From Nostoc sp. NIES-3756 (lineage in GTDB: Bacteria > Cyanobacteriota > Cyanobacteriia > Cyanobacteriales > Nostocaceae), in contig NZ_AP017295.1 of assembly GCF_001548375.1 (NCBI RefSeq), positions 1,956,501-2,020,500 of the forward strand: a stretch of DNA of 64,000 bases, read 5' to 3'. This document shows, piece after piece, positions 29,452 through 41,188 of this stretch (its first letter is position 1; each line of letters starts with the position of its first letter). A program made the translations under genes and the position numbers. Below the pieces are notes generated by a model that saw nothing but the letters and a program-made list of their open reading frames with translations, did no database searches and was not told the origin of the DNA.

Positions 29452-31674
29452 TTACGAATCATTCCCCATCAGTGGAAGTGTAATGATAAACTCAGCCCCC
29501 TCTCCTGGTGCAGAGATACACTTTAACTGTCCCTGGTGATTAGTAACGATAATTTGATAACTAATTGATAATCCCATACCAGTGCCTTTGCCTACAGGCT
29601 TGGTAGTAAAGAATGGGTCAAATAAACGACTACGAACTTTCTCTGTCATTCCCGGCCCATTATCAGCAATACAGATAATTATCTGATTATTAGTAGTAAG
29701 TTCAGTCCGAATAATTATCTGGGGATTTTCAGTTTTTGTACCATCGACAACTGACTCTTCTAAAGCATCGATCGCATTAGTTAATAAATTCATAAATACT
29801 TGATTCAGTTGTCCGGCGTGACATACTACGTCAGGTAGGTTGCCATACTTCTTGATGACTTGAATTACCTGAGAACTTTGTTTAGGTTTGAGGCGATGTT
29901 GCAACAATAATAATGTATTATCAATACCTTGGTGAATATCTGCCGACTTCACGCCATCTTCGTCTAAGCGAGAGAAATTACGTAAAGATAACACTATCTG
30001 TCGGATACGTTCGGCCCCTATGTCCATTGAGTCCAGTATTTTAGGCAAATCTTGAGCGATAAAATCTAAATCTATGTCGTGAATTTGCTGATGAATTTCT
30101 GGTACTGGTGGGCAGTAGTGCTGTTGATATAGTTCTATTAAATGCAATAATTCACTCACATATTCACGGGTGTGTTTGAGATTACCATAGATAAAATTGA
30201 CAGGATTATTAATTTCGTGGGCAATACCCGCTACTAATTGTCCCAAACTGGACATTTTTTCTGTTTGAATTAGTTGTGTCTGGGTTTGTTGTAGTTCTAA
30301 TAAAGCTGTTTCTAGTTGCTGTGCTTTTTCTTGGGCGATTTGGGCAGCAATACGATATTTGGCTTCAGATTTGCGCAATTCTTCTTCTGTTTGCTTGCGC
30401 TTAATGCCAATAGCAATTGCATTAGCGGAAATACTTAAAGCTTCTAAGCTAGATTCGTTGAGGGCTTGGCGAGAAAACATGGCAAGTACCCCAAATGTTT
30501 CTCCTTCCACAATCAAAGGATAGCCTGCAAAGGCTATCATTCCCTCTTGCTTTGCCCACTCTTTATTTCCCACACGCGCATCTGTCTGTACAGAGTTGGT
30601 AATGTGGGCTTTACCTTCTTCAGCAATTAACCCGATTTTGAATTGCCCGACTCGTACTCGTCTATGAGGCCCGTCAATGTGGGTATACATCCCCGAACTA
30701 ACCTGCAATTCTAGGACGTTATCTTGTTTATTCAGAGTCCAGATACGGGCAAAAGCTGCATCTAAATGTTTGACGATCGCCTGCGTGCATCCCTGCATTA
30801 AAATCTGTAAGGTATGACTTTGAGAAAGAATAGAATCAACTTCAGACCGGAAATCAGCTAATTTAACTCTCTGGGCTAGTTCGGCTTCTGTGCGTTTACG
30901 GTCTGTGATATCATAAGCTATGCCTACAAAGTATAAAACGTTGCCACTCTCATCTTTAACAGGAGAGGAGCTACTCGTATGCCAACGCCAGCTACCATCT
31001 TTATGTTTTGTGCGGTATTCCAAAGGGGCTTGCTTCTGCCCAGTTTTGAGAACTATGGCTAAGTAATTAGCACATAATGGCACATCATCGGGATGGACAA
31101 AGGGAACAAAAGATTTACCTTCTACCTCGGATATGTCATGTCCTAAAATCTCAGTCCAATTAGGTGAGACATAGGAAAAAACTCCCTCAAGTGTTAAGGC
31201 AAAAATGATGTTATTGGCATTTTCAACAATTCGCTGAAATTTATATTCACTTTCTAAAAGTGGTGTTTCTCTGACTGGAGTGATATCACGAATTAAAACT
31301 ATAATTTCTTGTTGTGCTATGGATAGTATTTGAGCTACGTATTTTTGCTCACCTGCTGGAGTTGATTTAGTATACTCGCAATTTACCACGGGTTCGGTTT
31401 GCAGGGCTTGAGCGATCGCCTGTTGAAATTCCTCTCTAAACTGCTGTGGTAATAATTCACCAAGATACTTGCCGACACCTATTTCTGAAAGATTAAATAA
31501 ATTCTCTGTCTTCTCTAATTTGTAATCTAAAATAATACCTTGTTTGTCTAGCCGGAAGTAATCATCGGATATCAATTGCAAAATAGCCGATAATTCTGGG
31601 ATTCCTTGCCATCCTTGGTCTTTATTTGAGTTTTTTACTTGTAGGGTATGTGGTGTAATCACTTTCTTAGACAA
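29452..31674 (-). CDS. PAS-PAS-GAF sensor histidine kinase
   Basis: 740 residues, cytoplasmic, with no membrane helix. Domains in order: PAS-like (about 30-130), PAS with PAC (about 142-262; KDGSWRWHTSSSSPVKDESG), GAF (about 275-428), a coiled coil (430-475), a HisKA-type dimerisation helix with the phosphoacceptor H486 (LGQLVAGIAHEINNPVNFIY), and a HATPase domain (NAIDALEE as N-box, IADNGPGMTEKVRSRLFDPF and GKGTGMGLSISYQII). The ligand is unknown. No response regulator is adjacent, so it is an orphan. It is divergent from the GTPase operon across 550 bases. Confidence 0.93.
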   Translation of the reverse strand: MSKKVITPHTLQVKNSNKDQGWQGIPELSAILQLISDDYFRLDKQGIILDYKLEKTENLFNLSEIGVGKYLGELLPQQFREEFQQAIAQALQTEPVVNCEYTKSTPAGEQKYVAQILSIAQQEIIVLIRDITPVRETPLLESEYKFQRIVENANNIIFALTLEGVFSYVSPNWTEILGHDISEVEGKSFVPFVHPDDVPLCANYLAIVLKTGQKQAPLEYRTKHKDGSWRWHTSSSSPVKDESGNVLYFVGIAYDITDRKRTEAELAQRVKLADFRSEVDSILSQSHTLQILMQGCTQAIVKHLDAAFARIWTLNKQDNVLELQVSSGMYTHIDGPHRRVRVGQFKIGLIAEEGKAHITNSVQTDARVGNKEWAKQEGMIAFAGYPLIVEGETFGVLAMFSRQALNESSLEALSISANAIAIGIKRKQTEEELRKSEAKYRIAAQIAQEKAQQLETALLELQQTQTQLIQTEKMSSLGQLVAGIAHEINNPVNFIYGNLKHTREYVSELLHLIELYQQHYCPPVPEIHQQIHDIDLDFIAQDLPKILDSMDIGAERIRQIVLSLRNFSRLDEDGVKSADIHQGIDNTLLLLQHRLKPKQSSQVIQVIKKYGNLPDVVCHAGQLNQVFMNLLTNAIDALEESVVDGTKTENPQIIIRTELTTNNQIIICIADNGPGMTEKVRSRLFDPFFTTKPVGKGTGMGLSISYQIIVTNHQGQLKCISAPGEGAEFIITLPLMGNDS

Positions 31675-32223
31675 GGGGGGAGTTGGGAAAAGAAAGCTTT
31701 TTACGTTTATCAGCTTTGCCCGTAAAAAACTTTCTAGAAAAAGTTAATTTTTTACTATTCTTAATATTTTATTTAGTAAATCTATAGTTTTACGCAATTT
31801 AGGCTATCCTAAATGTTATTTTCTTCTAAGCAATAAAGGATTCGGGAAAACACTGAAATTATAAATTATTGAGTCTAATAACGTGTAAATATACTTGTTT
31901 ATTTAATCAATTCAATTACCAAAATATCAATTTAATATTATAAAAAACTCGAACCTATCTATCATTAAGCAACAACCAATAATTTGCAAATAGTAAAAAT
32001 ATTACAACGTTAGATAGTAATAAAAATTACTTCCCCTCTACTCCTAATAAAACTTCCAACTCTTTAACTCATCTTTGCGCCCAATGCACCACTGCATGAG
32101 TAAATCACAACCACATCCAACAACACCAAACATCCTCATCAACAAAATGGCAGATAGGGAAGTGAAAATATTTTTTTTGTGTTATAAAACTCACAGAAAT
32201 TTATCTTAGCGGAAGGCTACTCT
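31675..32223. other. Divergent intergenic region before the GTPase operon
   Basis: About 550 AT-rich bases. TATAAA in TTGTGTTATAAAACTC (about 32176-32191) may be a -10 element of the GTPase operon. No open frame, hairpin or repeat stands out. Confidence 0.4.
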
Positions 32224-34773
32224 ATGGAGCCAGAAAAACTGGGAAGTTTTAAAGAGTACGGCGAACTGATTCTCCAAAAATTAGATTTTGTACCTCAATC
32301 TCCCTCACAACAAGAAGATTGGGTTCCTGCTAGTCTGGATGATTGTATTTTGCGCCTACGGGAAGCTGCCCAAAAAACTGTAGAATTGGCTACATCGCCC
32401 GTAAAAATTGGCGTGATGGGAGAATTTAGTAGTGGTAAAACTCTCCTTTTGGGTAGTCTCATCGGCTATGCAGATGCTTTACCTATTAGCGAAAATCCTA
32501 CGACGGGTAACGTCACAGCAATTCACCTCATCCCTCATCCTGGCTTCACTACCACCCAAGTAGATAATTTCACCGTCGAGTATCTGACGCGGGAAGGGGT
32601 GAATGAGTGCTTACGCTTCATGTTAGGAGAAGTCAACCGCCGGACGATCGCAGCCGGACTCCCACCCCTGCAACCTGCTAAACTAAATTCTGGCAAGGAT
32701 ATTCTCGCTTGGTGCGAAGCCACCTGGAATAGTAGTAATAATTTGGAACTGCGTTATATTTTGCGCGAGTTAGTGTTATTTATCCGCGCCTACAGTTCCT
32801 ACGGCGAAGCACTTTGTGGCGGAACCTACCAAATTGATCCCTCTGTTGCGCGTGAAGGTTTGCAGTTAGCCGAACAACCCCTAGCTATCCAAACTCTGCG
32901 CTTTGAAGATTTACCACCAGCACATATCCGCTTACCCAGTCCACCGCAAAGTTTACCCGCAAAGTTATTACAGAATAGTTTCCCCTTAATTCGCCGTGTT
33001 GATATTGAGGTGAAAATCTCACGGGAAATTTGGGATATTCCTGATGGGTGCGAATTTCTTCTTTTAGATTTTCCGGGTTTGGGTGCGGCTAATTCTGGTG
33101 CGAGGGATACCTTCTTATCATTGCGGGAATTAGCGGAAGTGCAGACAATTCTTGTACTACTCAATGGTAAGTCGCCGGGAAGCGATCGCGCCAATAAAAT
33201 TTTCACGATGATGCAGCAACAGCGTCCCGGACAAGATTTGAAGGATTTAATTTTGGTAGGGGTGGGACGGTTTGACCAGTTACCTTTGGAAAGTGAAGGC
33301 GGGGAAAGACTACTCGACCAATTAATTGACGAGAGTCAAACGCCGAATTTAACAACTGATAAGGTTTTGCAGAAACTCCGGGTGTTGCAAACTACTATTG
33401 ATGGTGCTAGTGCATTCACTACCAACAAAGACCGCATCGCTTTATTATCGCCCCTGTTGGGACTGGCGGAATTAGCCAAACGTTCCAGTAGTATCAAAGC
33501 CGGTTCGCCAGAGTTCTTAGCTAACTTGGACTATCCTAGTTACTTGGAGAGGTCGAAGCAGTTGCAGCAAAAGTGGGGGCATTTGAGCGATCGCCTGTTA
33601 GAATCAGATCCACGCAGTCATTTAAGCAGAAAGTTAGGTTACTTTGCTCAAGACGGGGGTATCGCCAAGCTGCGGGAATTGATTCAAAATCACGTTGCTA
33701 CCCACGGACTTAAGCAACTGTACGCTGATACTAGCCGCGCCGCCGACAATTTAAGGCAACAACAGGATAATCTAAAAGCTATCATCGCCGAAATTCATGA
33801 GCAGGGTATACCTACCGGGGATAGTCCAGCTTTAATTGAATTGCGTCAGGCGTTGGAAAATTTAGATAAAACTTATCGCAACTTCCAGAAAGATTTGGGT
33901 AAGGAACCACTCAAAGATAGACGGGGATCTGTAGTTAGTGATGTGGTTAAAGATGAGTTAACTTTTAGGGTTTTGAGTTGGAATCATTGGACTTTGTTAT
34001 TTAATAAAGCACACAATGGGACAATTACAATTACCGAATCAAAAGGTGCAGCCGGGAAGTTATTTGATAGAGGAAGTAGAGTTAATACTAGTATTCCTAC
34101 CAAGAGTGATGACTTTTATCCAGCCTTTGAAAAAACTGTGAAAGATGTAGAGGAATTTGCCCGCGATCGCATCCGCCAAGCGGTGGTAGATTTATTAAGT
34201 AAATTATCTGGACAAATCGCCACAGAAAAAGAGCGTTTGCAAGCACTCCTCAACCCAGAAATAGAGCAAGAGATTGAAACAAAATTTGGTGCGGAAGAAG
34301 CTGATTTATTTTACAAATTGTTATTAGGAAGTGACCCTACTCAATGGCAAGCGGCGATAATTGAAGAAATCAATCATCAGGAAAAATTTCTGACTCCAGA
34401 AGTTATGTTTCCTCTGGCGCGTCAGGATGAAAAACATGATATTGGTCAAATATTTGACTGGTCGCCAGAAAAAGCCCAAGCTATATCTAAATCTAGTAAT
34501 CATCAAATGTTTGTTTTACGACTGCGTGATGAAATTACTGCCAGCGCCAGCTTACATTTAGTGCAGTATGTGAGCGAAGTTAATCAAAGAGTCAATGCTG
34601 AATTAGAAGGTATCCTCGACCAAATTATCCCCACCTTACAAAATATATCTAAAAAAGATGGGTTATTAAGGTTTATCGCTGCTGGCGATACTCAATCCCC
34701 TGGTGCAGTACCTACTTGGTTACAAAATCTCTCAGAAATTGCCGATTTAGCAGTCAATTTCAGTAATGAGTAA
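32224..34773 (+). CDS. Dynamin-like GTPase, first gene of a three-gene unit
   Basis: 849 residues. A large P-loop GTPase domain occupies about 55-490: G1 is GEFSSGKT (66-73), the switch-I threonines lie in NPTTGNVTAIHL (about 91-102), G3 is DFPG (282-285) in EFLLLDFPGLGAANSG. The usual NKxD is replaced by VGRFD (347-351), preserving the Asp. The insert between G1 and G3 is unusually long. The C-terminal 350 residues are helical and charged, as in dynamin-superfamily stalks, but have no clear membrane paddle. GGAAGG lies 8 bases before the ATG. Only 43 bases separate it from the Hsp70-like gene. It resembles SrfC-type GTPases in layout; function unknown. Confidence 0.8.
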   Translation: MEPEKLGSFKEYGELILQKLDFVPQSPSQQEDWVPASLDDCILRLREAAQKTVELATSPVKIGVMGEFSSGKTLLLGSLIGYADALPISENPTTGNVTAIHLIPHPGFTTTQVDNFTVEYLTREGVNECLRFMLGEVNRRTIAAGLPPLQPAKLNSGKDILAWCEATWNSSNNLELRYILRELVLFIRAYSSYGEALCGGTYQIDPSVAREGLQLAEQPLAIQTLRFEDLPPAHIRLPSPPQSLPAKLLQNSFPLIRRVDIEVKISREIWDIPDGCEFLLLDFPGLGAANSGARDTFLSLRELAEVQTILVLLNGKSPGSDRANKIFTMMQQQRPGQDLKDLILVGVGRFDQLPLESEGGERLLDQLIDESQTPNLTTDKVLQKLRVLQTTIDGASAFTTNKDRIALLSPLLGLAELAKRSSSIKAGSPEFLANLDYPSYLERSKQLQQKWGHLSDRLLESDPRSHLSRKLGYFAQDGGIAKLRELIQNHVATHGLKQLYADTSRAADNLRQQQDNLKAIIAEIHEQGIPTGDSPALIELRQALENLDKTYRNFQKDLGKEPLKDRRGSVVSDVVKDELTFRVLSWNHWTLLFNKAHNGTITITESKGAAGKLFDRGSRVNTSIPTKSDDFYPAFEKTVKDVEEFARDRIRQAVVDLLSKLSGQIATEKERLQALLNPEIEQEIETKFGAEEADLFYKLLLGSDPTQWQAAIIEEINHQEKFLTPEVMFPLARQDEKHDIGQIFDWSPEKAQAISKSSNHQMFVLRLRDEITASASLHLVQYVSEVNQRVNAELEGILDQIIPTLQNISKKDGLLRFIAAGDTQSPGAVPTWLQNLSEIADLAVNFSNE

Positions 34774-34816
34774 TTAGTAGCCACCACTAATTACAACTGC
34801 ATAGGAAACCGATAAA

Positions 34817-37800
34817 ATGCCTGTAAAAATTCAGCTTGCACCACGCTTTCAGATGCGGGTTAATGAGAAAAAATACCTGGAACTCCCCAGCATTCAACTA
34901 ATTGGTACTGGGAACAATGTTCCCCATATTTCCCGTATAACCTGCACTGTTAAAGGCACATCAAGCGAATTGGCATCGAAGATAGAAAAATCCTATAGGC
35001 AATTTGATTCAGCCATACCGAAAATTTCTCAAATTGGGCAATTAGAACAGTATCCTTGTAAACTAGAGCAACCTTTAACACAAGCAATCAACTGTAATTT
35101 ACAGGTCATTGTCGAGTATTTTGATTCCGATTTATCAGGAAATCCCCAGTTATCAGCTCGGAAAAAAATAGCAGCCTATTGTCATCTGTGGTCACTACCT
35201 ATGAACCCTATAACACAACCCGAAACACCTCAACAAATCCGTAATTATCATGAGAAACAACCTGATGTGAAACCCCGTAAAAGGTTTCCTGGTTGGTTCG
35301 CTCTAGATTTTGGTACATCCAATTCTACCGTGACACTTTTTGATCCAATTGAAGTACCAATTGCCGAAGTTTTACCGAGAGAACAAGAATTAAGATTACG
35401 CGATCGCCTTTCTAGTTGGTTAAGTTCACCTGCTGCTATTGCTTTACCAGAAGTAAGCGAAAATGAGTGGGAAAAGTTTCTGAATGATATTAGTAAGAAC
35501 TTAGAAATCACACCCAGCCAATTAAGCGAAGTTTTTGAAACTGATAATAAAGATAGATTTTTAGAAGCGATTCGCCAAATAGAATTATGTTTAGGAAATA
35601 GTGATAGATTTCGTCACGCTGTTAGCAAGAAGTTATATAATATTTATCATGAGGTTTTTCGCGTCCCTACCTTAGAATCGCAAAATCTTATCCCGGTAGT
35701 TTTAGATATTGACCGCCGCGATACAGAAATTCCCAGTGAGTTAGAAATCTCCAGTTTGGCAGATTTAAACATTCGCATGGGTCGAGAAGCAAGGGATAAT
35801 AGAAAAAAGGCGATCGCTCAAGGAACCAGCAGTTCTCTAAAAGAAATTATCAGCAGATTTCACCACTCACCCAAGCGTTATTTTGGGCAAAAGCGTGATT
35901 TCTCAGTTATATTAGATGGTCAAGAAGAAACAATAAATGTTAACCAACTAGTACAGGCTGCTTGGTCACATTTAATTGATTTAACCGAAGATTATCGCCA
36001 ACGCGCTAGACGCAGATTTTCTGAAGGTGAATTTCTCACAGCCGTCGTCACCTACCCCACAGTTGCACCTCCCGTAGTGCGCAAAGAAGTCAAAGAATTA
36101 GTTCAACAAATCGGCATAGATGATGTACAAACCGCCTACGATGAAGCTGTATCTGTCGCCATCTTCTTCTTATGGCGTGAGTTTGGCGGTAATCTCAATA
36201 TTGGGATTGAATCTTTTAAAACCCGTTGCCGTCAAGAGAAAAATAAATGGTCACAAAACGTCCTAGTATTAGATATTGGCGGTGGAACAACAGACTTAGC
36301 TTTAATTGAACTCACCCTAGAAGATAAAACCCCATCTTTCGGTAGTAATGAAGATAGAGGATTAGGCGGACGTTACTATAAACTTACCCCAAAACTGTTA
36401 GGTTCCTCTGGACATTTACAACTGGGTGGCGAATTAATTACCTTGCGTGTGTATAGGTTATTGAAAGTTGCGATCGCAGATGCTTTACTCACAGCCATTA
36501 CCCTTGGTAACATCGAAAGCGACAAACTAGAAGACTTAATCAGTTCCGAATTAAACGAACGCTTTTTAGAACAAGGCAAATTCAAAAGTGGTAGTTTATT
36601 AAAATGTTTAGATAAAGAAAATCCCGAAGGTGACGCAGCCTATAAAGATGCTTTAGATACAGCCGAAAAAGTCATCCCCACCCGTTGGCAACAAGCACCC
36701 CAACGCCTGCAAAGCTTCTATACTTTATGGGATCATGCCGAAGCAGCCAAACTCAAACTCGGACAAAAATCACCTAATAATACTCCCCTCACCTTCACCC
36801 TTAGCGAACAACAAATAGCCGAACTCCTTACCCAAAGCGCCATCAAATTTCAAGTCAAAGAACTAGACACCCTCAACGTCACCCTAGACAGCCAGCAATT
36901 TGAACGCGCCGCCGCCTCCGCCATCAAGGAAGCAATTGGTATAGCTAAAGGTTTAATGCAAAGCCGCTTACGTCCTGAAGATAATAATATAGATTCTTGG
37001 AACACCCATAAAGTAGACTGGTTAATACTCTCCGGTAAAACCTGTAACCTCGACTTAGTACAGCACCACATTTACCAAGAATTTAGCACCTCCCCCTACT
37101 TCGTATGGAACCCTGAACGTATCACCTTTGTTCTGGAATATACCAAACTTGCCACCTCTGCTGGTGCTTGCTACGCCGAGAAACTGCGAAGACTGAGATT
37201 TGACCCCGAAGAATCAAAAGCCTTGTTACGTAAAGGCGCAAACCAATTAGAAATAGATGTCAAAAACCTCTTTTATTACCTCCCCTGCAACTTTAAACGC
37301 AAAACCCAAAGCAACGAACTCTTAACAGTATTCAAAGCAGGACAAGAACTCTACCAACTCGCAACCGGGGAAAACGTCGCCAAAGTCCGCACCGAATGGC
37401 AAGGGATACAGTTAACCAACATCATCTACCGCCAAGACTACGAAGATGGAGACTTGCGCCTATGGGGTAGCTTTGATGGCAAAACCCTTATGGAAAAATT
37501 GGGGATGGATGAAGGGGAATTTCTCAAAAAAATCAAAGTCCAATTTGAGATAGACCAAACCCTACAATTCAACGTCCTGCTGTGTCAAGGCAACCCCCAT
37601 TATTTAATCGATGTTCCCGGTATTGATGTCAATTCCGCCATATCCGCAGCTTCCGACACCTCCACCTTATTTGCTGACGGTGACTTGAACTGGAACATTG
37701 CCGTAGAAAATGCAGATAAAGACTTAAACGATGGTGATATAGCCGTCAATGTAATCGAATCTGCCACCGTCGATCAACCGGATGCCTATCATTTAGTATT

Positions 37801-38203
37801 TGCAGTAGATAAAATTAACCAAAAATCCCTGCAAGCATTCCATTATCTCCGTGATGGTTCACAACCACCAGGCGCAGGCTTAATTAGCAACCCCCTTCCC
37901 CCCTTTCCCCAAAGCGGACAGCACACCTTTTATGTGTACCAAACCGACACCGCCACTAACACCAAAAAATGGATACGTATCGGCGCACTCCGTAAACCTG
38001 ATGTGAGTACAGACTACCCTTGCCAATATCGCGTCACTCTTGACAACAGAGGTATTTTACGCATTCATGCTGGTGATGTACCTTACTGGACATCTACAGA
38101 TAAAGATTGTCTTCAGCAGGAAGGTTGTGTTTACCGCGCTGAGTTAGACTTGCAGCCTAATGAAGTTGATAAAGAACGCGATCCCTTCTGTGGAATACAT
38201 TAA
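34817..38203 (+). CDS. Very large Hsp70/actin-fold ATPase
   Basis: 1128 residues, nearly twice DnaK. An N-terminal beta-rich region (1-150) precedes an ASKHA ATPase core: phosphate-1 LDFGTSNSTVTLF (D164 on), the TYPTVAP segment (412-418), the connect-like YDEAVSVAIFF (E443), phosphate-2 VLVLDIGGGTTDLALIEL (D486-D493), and the adenosine-type motif VDWLILSGKTCN (about 740). The core has large insertions. The C-terminal 300 residues are beta-rich (GDLNWNIAVENADKDLNDGD) and do not resemble the DnaK substrate domain. AGGAAA precedes the ATG. It forms one transcript with the GTPase gene. The GTPase plus giant ASKHA ATPase pair recalls SrfC/SrfB. Substrate unknown. Confidence 0.8.
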   Translation: MPVKIQLAPRFQMRVNEKKYLELPSIQLIGTGNNVPHISRITCTVKGTSSELASKIEKSYRQFDSAIPKISQIGQLEQYPCKLEQPLTQAINCNLQVIVEYFDSDLSGNPQLSARKKIAAYCHLWSLPMNPITQPETPQQIRNYHEKQPDVKPRKRFPGWFALDFGTSNSTVTLFDPIEVPIAEVLPREQELRLRDRLSSWLSSPAAIALPEVSENEWEKFLNDISKNLEITPSQLSEVFETDNKDRFLEAIRQIELCLGNSDRFRHAVSKKLYNIYHEVFRVPTLESQNLIPVVLDIDRRDTEIPSELEISSLADLNIRMGREARDNRKKAIAQGTSSSLKEIISRFHHSPKRYFGQKRDFSVILDGQEETINVNQLVQAAWSHLIDLTEDYRQRARRRFSEGEFLTAVVTYPTVAPPVVRKEVKELVQQIGIDDVQTAYDEAVSVAIFFLWREFGGNLNIGIESFKTRCRQEKNKWSQNVLVLDIGGGTTDLALIELTLEDKTPSFGSNEDRGLGGRYYKLTPKLLGSSGHLQLGGELITLRVYRLLKVAIADALLTAITLGNIESDKLEDLISSELNERFLEQGKFKSGSLLKCLDKENPEGDAAYKDALDTAEKVIPTRWQQAPQRLQSFYTLWDHAEAAKLKLGQKSPNNTPLTFTLSEQQIAELLTQSAIKFQVKELDTLNVTLDSQQFERAAASAIKEAIGIAKGLMQSRLRPEDNNIDSWNTHKVDWLILSGKTCNLDLVQHHIYQEFSTSPYFVWNPERITFVLEYTKLATSAGACYAEKLRRLRFDPEESKALLRKGANQLEIDVKNLFYYLPCNFKRKTQSNELLTVFKAGQELYQLATGENVAKVRTEWQGIQLTNIIYRQDYEDGDLRLWGSFDGKTLMEKLGMDEGEFLKKIKVQFEIDQTLQFNVLLCQGNPHYLIDVPGIDVNSAISAASDTSTLFADGDLNWNIAVENADKDLNDGDIAVNVIESATVDQPDAYHLVFAVDKINQKSLQAFHYLRDGSQPPGAGLISNPLPPFPQSGQHTFYVYQTDTATNTKKWIRIGALRKPDVSTDYPCQYRVTLDNRGILRIHAGDVPYWTSTDKDCLQQEGCVYRAELDLQPNEVDKERDPFCGIH

Positions 38204-38214
38204 ACGCAGAGGAA

Positions 38215-38320
38215 CGCTGAGGTTAGCGCAGCGAAAAGTTCTGTAGGAGGGTTTCCCTCCGTAGGAAACTTTTCAAGACAGAGGGGCGCGGAGGATTTCT
38301 TTGCGCTTCTGCGTGAGATA
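38215..38320. repeat. Dispersed repeat with embedded palindrome inside the three-gene unit
   Basis: ACGCAGAGGAACGCTGAGG and GGGGCGCGGAGG flank a palindrome (38233-38274: GAAAAGTT pairs with AACTTTTC, inner GGAGGG with CCCTCC). The flanks are inverted relative to the CCTCCGCG run at 39475-39504, so the third gene is bracketed by inverted copies. Confidence 0.55.
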
Positions 38321-38336
38321 AAAAAAGGACATAATA

Positions 38337-39431
38337 ATGCAGCACTTACGTCAGCTACTAACAACACAAAACTCAGAATTAGCCCGGCTATTGCGGTTTA
38401 GCCTGCATGGAATTGAAGCATCTCTGAAAAAAGCCCAAGCAGAATTACCGCAAGATCCCGGCGCGGTGGTATGCGAACAAGTGCTGCAAGAATTGCGAAA
38501 TCTTCTACAAGAAGAAGCACAGGAATTAACTTTTATCCAGCATTCTGGTGAATTAAAGTTAGATTATCTACGCGAAGCTTTTGATTCCGACCCAGAACTG
38601 GCTTTATACTTGGGAGATTCATTATTACAAAGTCATACAGATGCCGATTTATGGAACGAAATTCACCGTAAACTATTACGAGTCCCAGAAGATTTAGCCC
38701 AAGTTTGGCGACAACGTGCTTTAGATTTTGCTCAAGAAATGGGGGCTGTAGAAGATAACGAATATCTCTATCATTTACCTTTTATCCGCAATGAAATTAT
38801 CTACCCTGGTTTAAGTGGTAGTGTAAATGCTCAAGGTTTATGTTTATCTCAAAAAGCATTTTTTCAAAATAATATTCTTCCTAATAACGCCTCAGAAGAA
38901 TTACATTTGTTAGCTAGTTTCCTGCTTTTATGGAGTAAGTTTATTGAAATAGAACCAGATTTACATCATGCCCTCAAAAGCGTTTTCAGCTTTGATGTTG
39001 TTTGCTTATATTCCCAACCAGACCAACAAAATCAATATATCGACACCTTAATAGACCGCTTCCAACGCACAAAAAAAGCTGAAGAAATTTCTGATCCCTT
39101 ATCAACTTTACGTGCTTGGATAGACATGGATGAAGCCATTAATTCCTTAGTATTTATACCACCCTCTGAACGATATTCTTGGTGGGGTAAACTACAACAA
39201 GAATCCAGACGCACTTTAAAAAAGATAGTCGATAGAGCAATAAATGCAGGTTATGATGTACGGATTCGCCAATTAACAGGAATTTACGCCGACATTTGCG
39301 CCTTTTCCAAAGATGACTTGCAACTCGACTACGGTGGTGTTCCTGGGGAAGTTTTAACCTGTCTACGAGTCTATGCACGCATTAACCAAGAAGAAATCCC
39401 CGGACGTGTTATCTTTCGTTCATCACGCTAG
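38337..39431 (+). CDS. Unrecognised helical protein, third gene of the GTPase/ATPase unit
   Basis: 364 residues, no known domain recognised. The first 150 residues are strongly helical and charged (LRQLLTTQNSELARLLRFSL, VLQELRNLLQEEAQELTF, ALYLGDSLLQSHTDADLWNE); the rest is mixed and Trp-containing, ending in a basic tail (GRVIFRSSR). No signal peptide, membrane helix or Cys pair is seen. AAGGA lies 8 bases before the ATG. It follows the giant ATPase gene by 133 bases on the same strand, with the same codon habits, and is probably a third component or adaptor. In enterobacterial srfABC a third protein, SrfA, is likewise present, but I see no sequence match that I can claim. Confidence 0.75.
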   Translation: MQHLRQLLTTQNSELARLLRFSLHGIEASLKKAQAELPQDPGAVVCEQVLQELRNLLQEEAQELTFIQHSGELKLDYLREAFDSDPELALYLGDSLLQSHTDADLWNEIHRKLLRVPEDLAQVWRQRALDFAQEMGAVEDNEYLYHLPFIRNEIIYPGLSGSVNAQGLCLSQKAFFQNNILPNNASEELHLLASFLLLWSKFIEIEPDLHHALKSVFSFDVVCLYSQPDQQNQYIDTLIDRFQRTKKAEEISDPLSTLRAWIDMDEAINSLVFIPPSERYSWWGKLQQESRRTLKKIVDRAINAGYDVRIRQLTGIYADICAFSKDDLQLDYGGVPGEVLTCLRVYARINQEEIPGRVIFRSSR

Positions 39432-40375: not shown

Positions 40376-41188
40376 ATGATTAAAAGTCCACTTCGTTATC
40401 CTGGCGGTAAATCAAAAGCCATCAAGCAAATAATTGAATATTTACCAGAAAATTTTCATGAATTTCGAGAACCATTTGTTGGTGGTGGTTCTGTGTTTAT
40501 TTATTTAAAGCAAAAATTTCCTAAATTAAAAATCTGGATTAATGACTTAAATACTGAATTATTCTTATTTTGGAAGATAGCTCAGTCCAGCCTATCTCAA
40601 TTAGTTGAAGAAATCCATCAAATTAAAGATAAATATGAAGATGGTAAATTACTATTTTTAGCATTAACCACTCTTGATGTAAACAGCTTATCTGATTTAG
40701 ATAGAGCCGTAAGATTCTTTATACTCAATCGCATCACTTTCTCTGGTACTGTAGAATCAGGGGGTTTTTCTGAGGAAGCTTTTCATAAAAGGTTTACCTA
40801 TTCTTCCATAGAAAGATTAGAAAAACTAGAAAGTATTTTAACTAAAAACATAAAAATCACTAACTTAGATTACAGCCAAGTATTAAATACAGAAGACGAG
40901 AAAGTATTTATATTTTTAGATCCTCCTTATTTTAGTGCAACTAAATCTAGATTGTATGGTAAATATGGTAATTTACACACTTCATTTGACCATCATCAAT
41001 TTGCCCAATTACTAAAACAATGTCCTCATAGCTGGTTAATCACCTATGACAACTCGCCACAAATTCGAGCCAATTTTCCTTTTGCTAATATCTACGAATG
41101 GGAATTACAGTACGGCATGAATAACTATAAACAAAATATTGCTGCAAAGGGAAAGGAGTTATTTATTACCAACTATATTATTAGTTGA
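40376..41188 (+). CDS. D12-class (Dam-like) DNA adenine-N6 methyltransferase
   Basis: 270 residues, normal for the class. The SAM-binding motif RYPGGKSKAI (near 7-16), the region FREPFVGGGSVFIYLK (30-45), and the catalytic DPPY (D182-Y185, in FIFLDPPYFSATKS) are all present in Dam order. It transfers a methyl group to adenine in a short target; GATC is the commonest target of this class, but the sequence alone does not settle it. No restriction enzyme lies beside it, so it appears to be a solitary methylase. The start is poorly marked by a ribosome site. Confidence 0.88.
   Translation: MIKSPLRYPGGKSKAIKQIIEYLPENFHEFREPFVGGGSVFIYLKQKFPKLKIWINDLNTELFLFWKIAQSSLSQLVEEIHQIKDKYEDGKLLFLALTTLDVNSLSDLDRAVRFFILNRITFSGTVESGGFSEEAFHKRFTYSSIERLEKLESILTKNIKITNLDYSQVLNTEDEKVFIFLDPPYFSATKSRLYGKYGNLHTSFDHHQFAQLLKQCPHSWLITYDNSPQIRANFPFANIYEWELQYGMNNYKQNIAAKGKELFITNYIIS

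What the first reader, a model, noticed from the sequence alone, without database searches (positions are those of the whole stretch)
32224..39431. Three-gene unit: dynamin-like GTPase, giant Hsp70-fold ATPase, helical third protein
Seen: same-strand genes spaced 43 and 133 bases apart; GTPase motifs GEFSSGKT and DFPG with NKxD replaced by VGRFD; ASKHA motifs LDFGTSNST and LDIGGGTTD in a protein of 1128 residues; a third protein with no recognised domain. Known: enterobacterial SrfC (GTPase-like) and SrfB (Hsp70/actin-like) form a comparable, poorly understood pair. Inference: an NTP-driven remodelling or conflict system in cyanobacteria, with two nucleotide motors and one adaptor. I cannot name a function.
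Basis: partly seen in the sequence, partly recalled or inferred. Interest (0 to 1): 0.75.

Follow-up and report, generated by a model that had tools for sequence, protein, structure and literature searches.

The report
Dynamin–Hsp70-type three-gene unit in filamentous bacteria
A bacterium related to Nostoc carries three neighbouring genes, for a membrane-shaping dynamin-like protein, a giant Hsp70-like motor and an unknown partner, which are found together even in very distant bacteria and so probably form one cellular machine whose task is not known.

Summary
Gene 1 is a dynamin-superfamily protein (predicted fold: SynDLP, BDLP, mitofusin, Drp1); none of 50 sequences compared has a canonical G4 motif. 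Gene 2 is an Hsp70-like ATPase of about 1000-1250 residues with the five ASKHA motifs; it touches Pfam SrfB only locally. Gene 3 matches no family; its predicted fold is mixed helix and sheet, without a significant solved relative. The unit is real: each gene was found in the same 32 of 292 cyanobacterial genomes, all three lie in the order g1-g2-g3 in 41 of 48 retrieved loci, and the order recurs in two actinobacteria and, across a contig break, one Myxococcota genome. Low dN/dS, ordinary chromosomal neighbours and no match in plasmid, phage and viral collections speak for a cell-biological machine rather than the proposed conflict system. Most likely (about 50%) gene 2 is the dedicated ATPase that loads or disassembles the gene 1 dynamin on membranes, gene 3 an adaptor or co-chaperone. 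A 2018 survey already noted cyanobacterial dynamins with a DnaK-type gene downstream; the third gene and the cross-phylum conservation are not in what I read.

The parts
32181..32195 (+). Conserved upstream block GTTATAAAACTCACA, starting 43 bases before the gene-1 start codon; probable promoter/operator element (role inferred)
   Evidence: Found with up to 3 mismatches in 25 of 45 gene-1 upstream regions, each at -43 to -45; 0.48 expected by shuffling. The pattern was picked after seeing an alignment of seven of these regions, so the expectation is too low. Mainly in Nostoc/Anabaena-type loci; absent for example from Fischerella L097 and the Calothrix loci L095, L096, L098, L100.
32224..34773 (+). 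Gene 1 (g1), 849 aa: dynamin-superfamily NTPase (GTPase domain, bundle signalling element, long stalk helices)
32419..32442 (+). g1 P-loop (G1) GEFSSGKT
   Evidence: GxxxxGK[ST] kept in 49 of 50 sequences; GEFNTTKT in L049
33067..33078 (+). g1 G3 motif DFPG
   Evidence: 50 of 50 sequences
33262..33276 (+). g1 non-canonical G4 motif VGRFD in place of (N/T)KxD
   Evidence: R in the lysine position in 48 of 50 (the others NNMFD and IGKFD); last residue D, N or H
34817..38203 (+). Gene 2 (g2), 1128 aa: giant Hsp70-like (ASKHA) ATPase, distantly SrfB-like
   Evidence: SrfB 26.2 bits against 27.1, 28.8; best PDB sequence matches are DnaK/Hsp70, weak (E 0.003 and up); homologues in Actinomycetota
34817..35227 (+). 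g2 N-terminal domain (about 137 aa), missing in a set of Nostoc-type loci
   Evidence: g2 match starts after residue 100 in 18 of 48 loci, of which L105 is cut by the contig end and L108 has a divergent domain there; the profile matches from position 1 in Streptomyces and 16-158 on the adjoining Myxococcota contig
35306..35329 (+). g2 phosphate-1 motif DFGTSNST
   Evidence: 47 of 50 identical, the other three differ by one residue
36272..36295 (+). g2 phosphate-2 motif DIGGGTTD
   Evidence: 48 of 50 identical, 2 with DVGGGTTD
37028..37042 (+). g2 adenosine motif LSGKT
   Evidence: 45 of 50 identical
38180..38200 (+). g2 conserved C-terminal tail DPFCGIH
   Evidence: [DN]PFxGx[HQ] in 49 of 50; the remaining one is a gap
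38337..39431 (+). Gene 3 (g3), 364 aa: unknown partner, mixed helix and sheet, predicted adaptor or co-chaperone
   Evidence: No family hit; 373 homologues, the 120 listed being cyanobacterial where named; AF2 pLDDT 86.5; no Foldseek PDB match with E<=0.001

Best explanation
A three-component membrane-remodelling machine. g1 is a dynamin-like protein that assembles on membranes and works through NTP hydrolysis. g2 is a dedicated Hsp70-like ATPase that loads, remodels or takes apart the g1 assembly, much as Hsc70 acts on clathrin coats. g3 is the constant adaptor or co-chaperone that couples the two. Shown here: the predicted fold of g1, the motifs of g2, intact catalytic motifs apart from g1's G4, gene linkage across three phyla, and low dN/dS. 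Inferred: physical complex, membrane action, order of events. Because the named carriers are mainly filamentous or otherwise multicellular bacteria (lifestyles recalled), a role at septa or cell-cell contacts is the favoured but untested site. g1's base specificity is open, because G4 is not canonical.
For: The same 32 of 292 genomes carry g1, g2 and g3. All three on one strand in order in 41 of 48 named loci, Streptomyces L108 among them with a one-base stop/start overlap of g1 and g2, in a second actinobacterium (L133) and in Myxococcota across a contig break. Patristic distances correlate, r 0.97-0.99 over 44 loci. g1 folds as a dynamin. g2 has all five ASKHA motifs, nearest in sequence to DnaK/Hsp70. 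dN/dS 0.065-0.123 in two comparisons. No match on plasmids, phages or viral contigs. The coupling of a DLP to an Hsp70 chaperone was proposed before from gene order (PMC5827413 section 7).
Against: No complex was modelled and no interaction or localisation is known to me. g3 is unlinked to g1-g2 in G025 and G032 (G032 is the Calothrix of L100); L060 has g3 but no g1 or g2, L056 g2 and g3 but no g1, and L071 and the second Nostoc KVJ20 copy L087 show no g3. G029 holds only pieces. g2 fails the Hsp70 cut-off and no substrate-binding domain was identified. The g1 P-loop is broken in L049, and G4 is non-canonical throughout, so GTP is not assured. g1 has no TM segment by hydropathy. Carriers outside the family are sporadic (2 of 296 Actinomycetota, the source included).
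Confidence: 0.5

Rival explanations
1. A conflict (anti-phage or abortive-infection) system of multicellular bacteria: g1 and g2 form an NTP-driven switch and g3 the sensor or effector.
For: Sporadic carriage outside the family (2 of 296; 18 strong carriers in other families); named carriers mostly filamentous; weak PADLOC hits LeoA 9.9e-6 and PDC-M61B 0.012; NTP-dependent conflict systems are enriched in multicellular bacteria, one class pairing GTPases with HSP70 (PMC7159879, passages).
Against: 33 of 35 family genomes hold g3 and all three genes sit in the same 32 of 292 genomes; low dN/dS; ordinary chromosomal neighbours; no effector family recognised in g1-g3, though neighbours were only clustered, with six of the window's flanking genes named by Pfam; no plasmid, phage or viral-contig match.
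Confidence: 0.18
2. A cytoskeletal or scaffolding device: g2 behaves as an actin/ParM-like filament and g1 anchors it to membranes.
For: g2 also brushes FtsA, MreB and Alp7A-like profiles and MreB chains, all weakly.
Against: The best PDB sequence matches are DnaK/Hsp70, within DnaK residues 255-368; no fold model of g2 was made, so this stays open.
Confidence: 0.12
3. A member of the SrfABC group (genes reported in Salmonella and as a cytotoxin in Xenorhabdus): g2 = SrfB, g1 = SrfC, g3 = SrfA in reverse order.
For: g2 reaches the SrfB cut-off in one search, the Streptomyces g2 too (27.3 bits), and sources name homologues 'virulence factor SrfB'.
Against: SrfB matches cover about 70-136 of 992 positions around the phosphate-2 motif, and the second actinobacterial g2 has no Pfam match at E 0.001; PF10139 (SrfC) matched 0 of 14 g1 proteins; g1 is a dynamin by predicted fold.
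Confidence: 0.08

Closest known systems
'Chaperone clade' of cyanobacterial dynamin-like proteins (PMC5827413, section 7 read)
   Same: A cyanobacterial DLP with a DnaK-domain protein encoded downstream; the authors proposed that DLP activity is linked to an Hsp70.
   Different: No third gene, no SrfB relation and no occurrence outside cyanobacteria in the section read. The gene list is in a supplement that could not be read, so identity with this locus is likely but not shown.
SynDLP (7zw6, 9em9), Nostoc BDLP (2j69), mitofusins, Drp1
   Same: Dynamin-superfamily fold of g1: the 50 rows listed by each of the two fold comparisons are dynamin relatives.
   Different: About 8-16% identity, non-canonical G4, and a constant ASKHA partner. 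The window's own genome has four much stronger Dynamin_N loci elsewhere (67-119 bits against 28.6); the three stretches covering these hold no ASKHA phosphate-2 motif.
SrfB (PF07520) of SrfABC
   Same: ASKHA core around the phosphate-2 motif; large size; three-gene setting.
   Different: Match limited to at most 136 of 992 positions; partner g1 is not matched by PF10139; different hosts.
DnaK/Hsp70
   Same: Five ASKHA motifs; best PDB sequence hits.
   Different: Below the Pfam HSP70 cut-off (12.7 against 20.6), motifs further apart, own N-terminal domain and C-terminal tail.
DO-GTPase/GAP1 systems with HSP70 or tubulin (PMC7159879, passages read)
   Same: GTPase plus HSP70 in one gene cluster of multicellular bacteria.
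   Different: Those GTPases often carry zinc ribbons and have a GAP1 partner, as described there; g1 is a dynamin. Their profiles were not run here.
LeoABC bacterial dynamins
   Same: PADLOC LeoA matches the g1 P-loop region (E 9.9e-6).
   Different: Match covers 51 residues only, and Leo has no Hsp70-type partner (recalled).

Membership tests
Dynamin superfamily (g1) | Dynamin_N GTPase domain | tested here: met
   29.0 bits, cut-off 27; 14 of 14 homologues at E up to 1
Dynamin superfamily (g1) | GTPase plus bundle signalling element plus helical stalk | tested here: met
Dynamin superfamily (g1) | Canonical G4 (N/T)KxD | tested here: not met
   None of 50; R for K in 48 of 50, last residue D/N/H
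Dynamin superfamily (g1) | Membrane binding and nucleotide-driven assembly | not testable with these tools
   Needs protein
ASKHA/Hsp70 (g2) | Phosphate 1, connect 1, phosphate 2, adenosine, connect 2 motifs | tested here: met
   50 sequences; the motif assignment is mine
ASKHA/Hsp70 (g2) | Reaches Pfam HSP70 cut-off over the family length | tested here: not met
   12.7 bits against 20.6, residues 475-520 only
SrfB PF07520 (g2) | Profile match over most of its length | tested here: not met
   Positions 508-643 of 992; similar or shorter ranges in five homologues
SrfB PF07520 (g2) | Score above the curated cut-off | tested here: inconclusive
   26.2 and 28.8 against 27.1 for the window; one of five homologues over it (L108, 27.3)
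SrfABC operon | SrfC (PF10139) partner | tested here: not met
   0 of 14 g1 proteins at E up to 1. No positive control: the whole-genome search for PF10139 rang nowhere, the 14 control genomes included
SrfABC operon | SrfA partner | not tested
   No SrfA profile was used
Chaperone clade of cyanobacterial DLPs | DnaK-domain-type protein encoded downstream of the DLP | tested here: met
   g2 directly downstream of g1, taking g2 as the DnaK-type protein
Chaperone clade of cyanobacterial DLPs | Clade membership in the published tree | not testable with these tools
DO-GTPase/GAP1 conflict systems | TRAFAC DO-GTPase with GAP1 partner | not tested
   Their profiles were not at hand; no zinc-ribbon family appeared in the g1 scan

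The most novel reading that the evidence does not exclude
This is an ancient Hsp70-driven dynamin machine, the bacterial counterpart of chaperone-coupled membrane fission in eukaryotes, kept by filamentous and multicellular bacteria of three phyla to remodel septal or cell-cell contact membranes, with g3 as a new co-chaperone family.
Probability: 0.25. Interest if true: 0.85.

Novelty: new variant of a known kind. Interest (0 to 1): 0.6.

Why it matters
Bacterial dynamins are widespread but their cellular roles are poorly known. A dynamin tied to its own giant Hsp70-like ATPase and to a constant third protein, from cyanobacteria to Streptomyces, gives a defined three-gene system in a genetically tractable group (Anabaena) with which chaperone control of a bacterial dynamin can be tested. 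It also questions the label 'virulence factor SrfB' that sources give to gene-2 homologues in phototrophs: the evidence here does not support it as a function.

Tried and rejected
Rejected: SrfC identity of g1; a simple helical g3; NtcA nitrogen control as an explanation for carriage in heterocyst-formers (GTAN8TAC in 6 of 44 upstream regions, 5.2 expected); strict heterocyst specificity (Oscillatoria, Hormoscilla, Okeania, Streptomyces and a Myxococcota genome carry it); mobile or phage origin (g3 itself was not searched there).

Dropped before counting: 11 of the 85 hits (G635, G638, G683, G692, G715, G726, G734, G757, G784, G797, G819; E 1.3e-4 to 8.2e-4, short matches that look DnaK-like) leaving 74 of 368, 56 in the window's family and 18 outside. 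One search does not show how many family members were drawn (263 unmatched genomes are not listed), so no share is given for it. In one search, L105 and L108 were left out and the window added (47 loci used).
Full report
What is there. Three same-strand ORFs, 32224-34773 (849 aa), 34817-38203 (1128 aa) and 38337-39431 (364 aa), lie 43 and 133 bases apart. ARAGORN found no tRNA in the window and Rfam no match at gathering scores. The window is part of a 6.99 Mb genome held as G000; the names returned for close homologues are Nostoc, Anabaena and relatives, so I call its unnamed family f1 Nostocaceae. I call the genes g1, g2, g3.

g2. Pfam SrfB scores 26.2 bits in one search and 28.8 in another against a cut-off of 27.1, over 120-136 of 992 positions. 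Hsp70 stays under its cut-off. The five ASKHA motifs are intact in nearly all of 50 sequences, and a profile of 11 homologues finds DnaK and Hsp70 chains first among solved structures, weakly (E 0.003 and up). Homologues in Actinomycetota and Myxococcota align at 24-38% identity, with 66 invariant columns from residue 164 to 1126 of the window protein. The 137-residue N-terminal domain is missing in a set of Nostoc-type loci (16 of the 48 loci, not counting L105, cut by its contig, and L108, where it is divergent).

Linkage. In a draw of 292 cyanobacterial genomes, g1, g2 and g3 were searched separately and each was found in the same 32 genomes, all in the window's family; no unmatched family member appears in the listings, which leave out 240 unmatched genomes. 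In 59 relatives, all listed, g3 was in 33 of 35 family members (own genome included; G024 and G034 lack it, and G029 has pieces only) and in 2 of 24 others. Of 34 stretches I fetched around these hits, 26 hold all three genes; the rest include two genomes with g3 elsewhere (G025, G032), a contig edge (L054), a decayed copy (L058), L056 without g1 and L060 with g3 alone. A more sensitive g2 profile over 368 genomes of the order found 85, of which I discard 11 short DnaK-like matches, leaving 74: 56 in the family and 18 outside. Contig coordinates identify three of the outsiders as Oscillatoria princeps (G684), Hormoscilla (G736) and Okeania (G802), filamentous cyanobacteria without heterocysts (the lifestyle is my knowledge).

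Across phyla. Of 48 loci found in named genomes, 41 hold all three genes on one strand in the order g1-g2-g3, with gaps of 12-1487 and 31-1969 bases (distances between matched stretches). The seven others are L071, L087, L090, L091, L100, L105 and L107; L090 and L107 end at a contig edge after or inside g2, and L105 begins at one. One of the 41 is a Streptomyces (L108), where the g1 stop overlaps the g2 start by one base. L105 is a Myxococcota genome: g2 begins at the contig edge and is followed by g3, while another contig of the same genome ends in g1 followed by the start of g2, both ends reading PGWIAI. A survey of 296 Actinomycetota genomes found two carriers, the Streptomyces itself and an unnamed one, which again has all three in order with a 4-base g1/g2 overlap. 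A protein search from the Streptomyces g2 listed 45 proteins, the query included; those with names are from Streptomyces, Nocardia, Streptosporangium, Nonomuraea and other actinobacteria; whether they have g1 and g3 beside them was not examined. In Myxococcota only 5 genomes could be drawn, 1 positive, the source itself. Distances in the three gene trees correlate at 0.97-0.99 over 44 loci, and at 0.94-0.99 within cyanobacteria alone; shared species history contributes to this.

Selection and setting. dN/dS against two relatives is 0.065-0.083 for g1 and g2 and 0.10-0.12 for g3; dS is above 1 in one of the two comparisons. The most frequent neighbour families in 47 loci are histidine kinases (21 loci), a D12-type DNA methyltransferase (18), trpD-type and aspartyl-protease genes (17 each) and carA-type genes (14), and they change between clades while the unit stays (Pfam for the window copies). 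No match was found on 72,556 plasmid records (window g1 and g2, Streptomyces g2), 50,697 phage records (g2) or viral contigs (g2 profile). A 15-base block 43-45 bases before g1 is kept in 25 of 45 upstream regions.

How it most likely works. The evidence shows a dynamin, an Hsp70-like ATPase and a constant third protein inherited together. From what dynamins and Hsp70s do in general, I infer that g1 assembles on a membrane, g2 spends ATP to load or take apart that assembly, and g3 couples them. I put this at 0.5. A septal or cell-contact site is suggested only by the filamentous or multicellular character of most named carriers. The conflict reading keeps 0.18: it suits the patchy carriage outside the family, but not the near-universal carriage within it, the selection, the neighbours or the lack of recognised effectors and mobile copies.

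What is known. A 2018 review-survey (PMC5827413, section 7 read in full; passages) sorted cyanobacterial dynamins into clades, one being a 'chaperone' clade with a DnaK-domain protein encoded downstream, and proposed a link between the two activities. This is probably the same g1-g2 pair, though its list could not be read; the three stretches of this genome that cover its four strongest Dynamin_N loci hold no ASKHA phosphate-2 motif. I found no paper on SrfB in cyanobacteria: the search 'SrfB' with 'cyanobacteria' returned two papers, unrelated by title and abstract start, and 'dynamin-like' with 'heterocyst' two general ones., of which only listings with abstract starts were seen, showed nothing on this unit apart from that survey. 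SrfABC in Xenorhabdus was seen as passages (PMC6950479), as were the conflict systems of PMC7159879, PMC10907252, PMC9950537 and SynDLP, PMC10104851.

Noticed in passing
L105:4347-7391: In the Myxococcota genome g3 is followed by a 1014-aa ORF with CxxC pairs (zinc-ribbon-like by eye) and coiled-coil-like stretches; no Pfam match. Possibly a fourth component there.
   Followed up: partly
window 32181-32195: Conserved block GTTATAAAACTCACA with near-palindromic flanks upstream of g1 (25 of 45 loci); looks like an operator over a promoter, binding protein unknown.
   Followed up: partly
L071:7694-8554, between g1 and g2: A DUF2887 gene (Pfam) sits between g1 and g2 in 8 of 47 loci; in 7 of the 8 g2 lacks its N-terminal domain, in L080 it is complete.
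   Followed up: partly
L058 (G029) and G029:C1:3774087-3775387: One family member carries only pieces of g2 and g3, apparently a decayed copy.
   Followed up: no
L049:2726-5275: The g1 of a cyanobacterium outside the family has a degenerate P-loop (GEFNTTKT) although g1-g2-g3 are tightly packed (gaps 35 and 8 bases).
   Followed up: no
L064 and L087 (Nostoc KVJ20); L095 and L102 (Calothrix PCC 7103): Two divergent copies of the unit in one genome; the second KVJ20 copy has no g3 in its locus.
   Followed up: no
L146:1183-8056 (G000 C1 about 3.494-3.501 Mb): Another dynamin-like gene of the same genome is followed by a 450-aa ORF without Pfam match and by vWA and PP2C genes, a different cluster.
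   Followed up: partly
window 29452-31674 and 40376-41188: Flanking genes: a PAS/GAF histidine kinase and a D12-class adenine methyltransferase, with relatives in 21 and 18 of 47 loci.
   Followed up: partly
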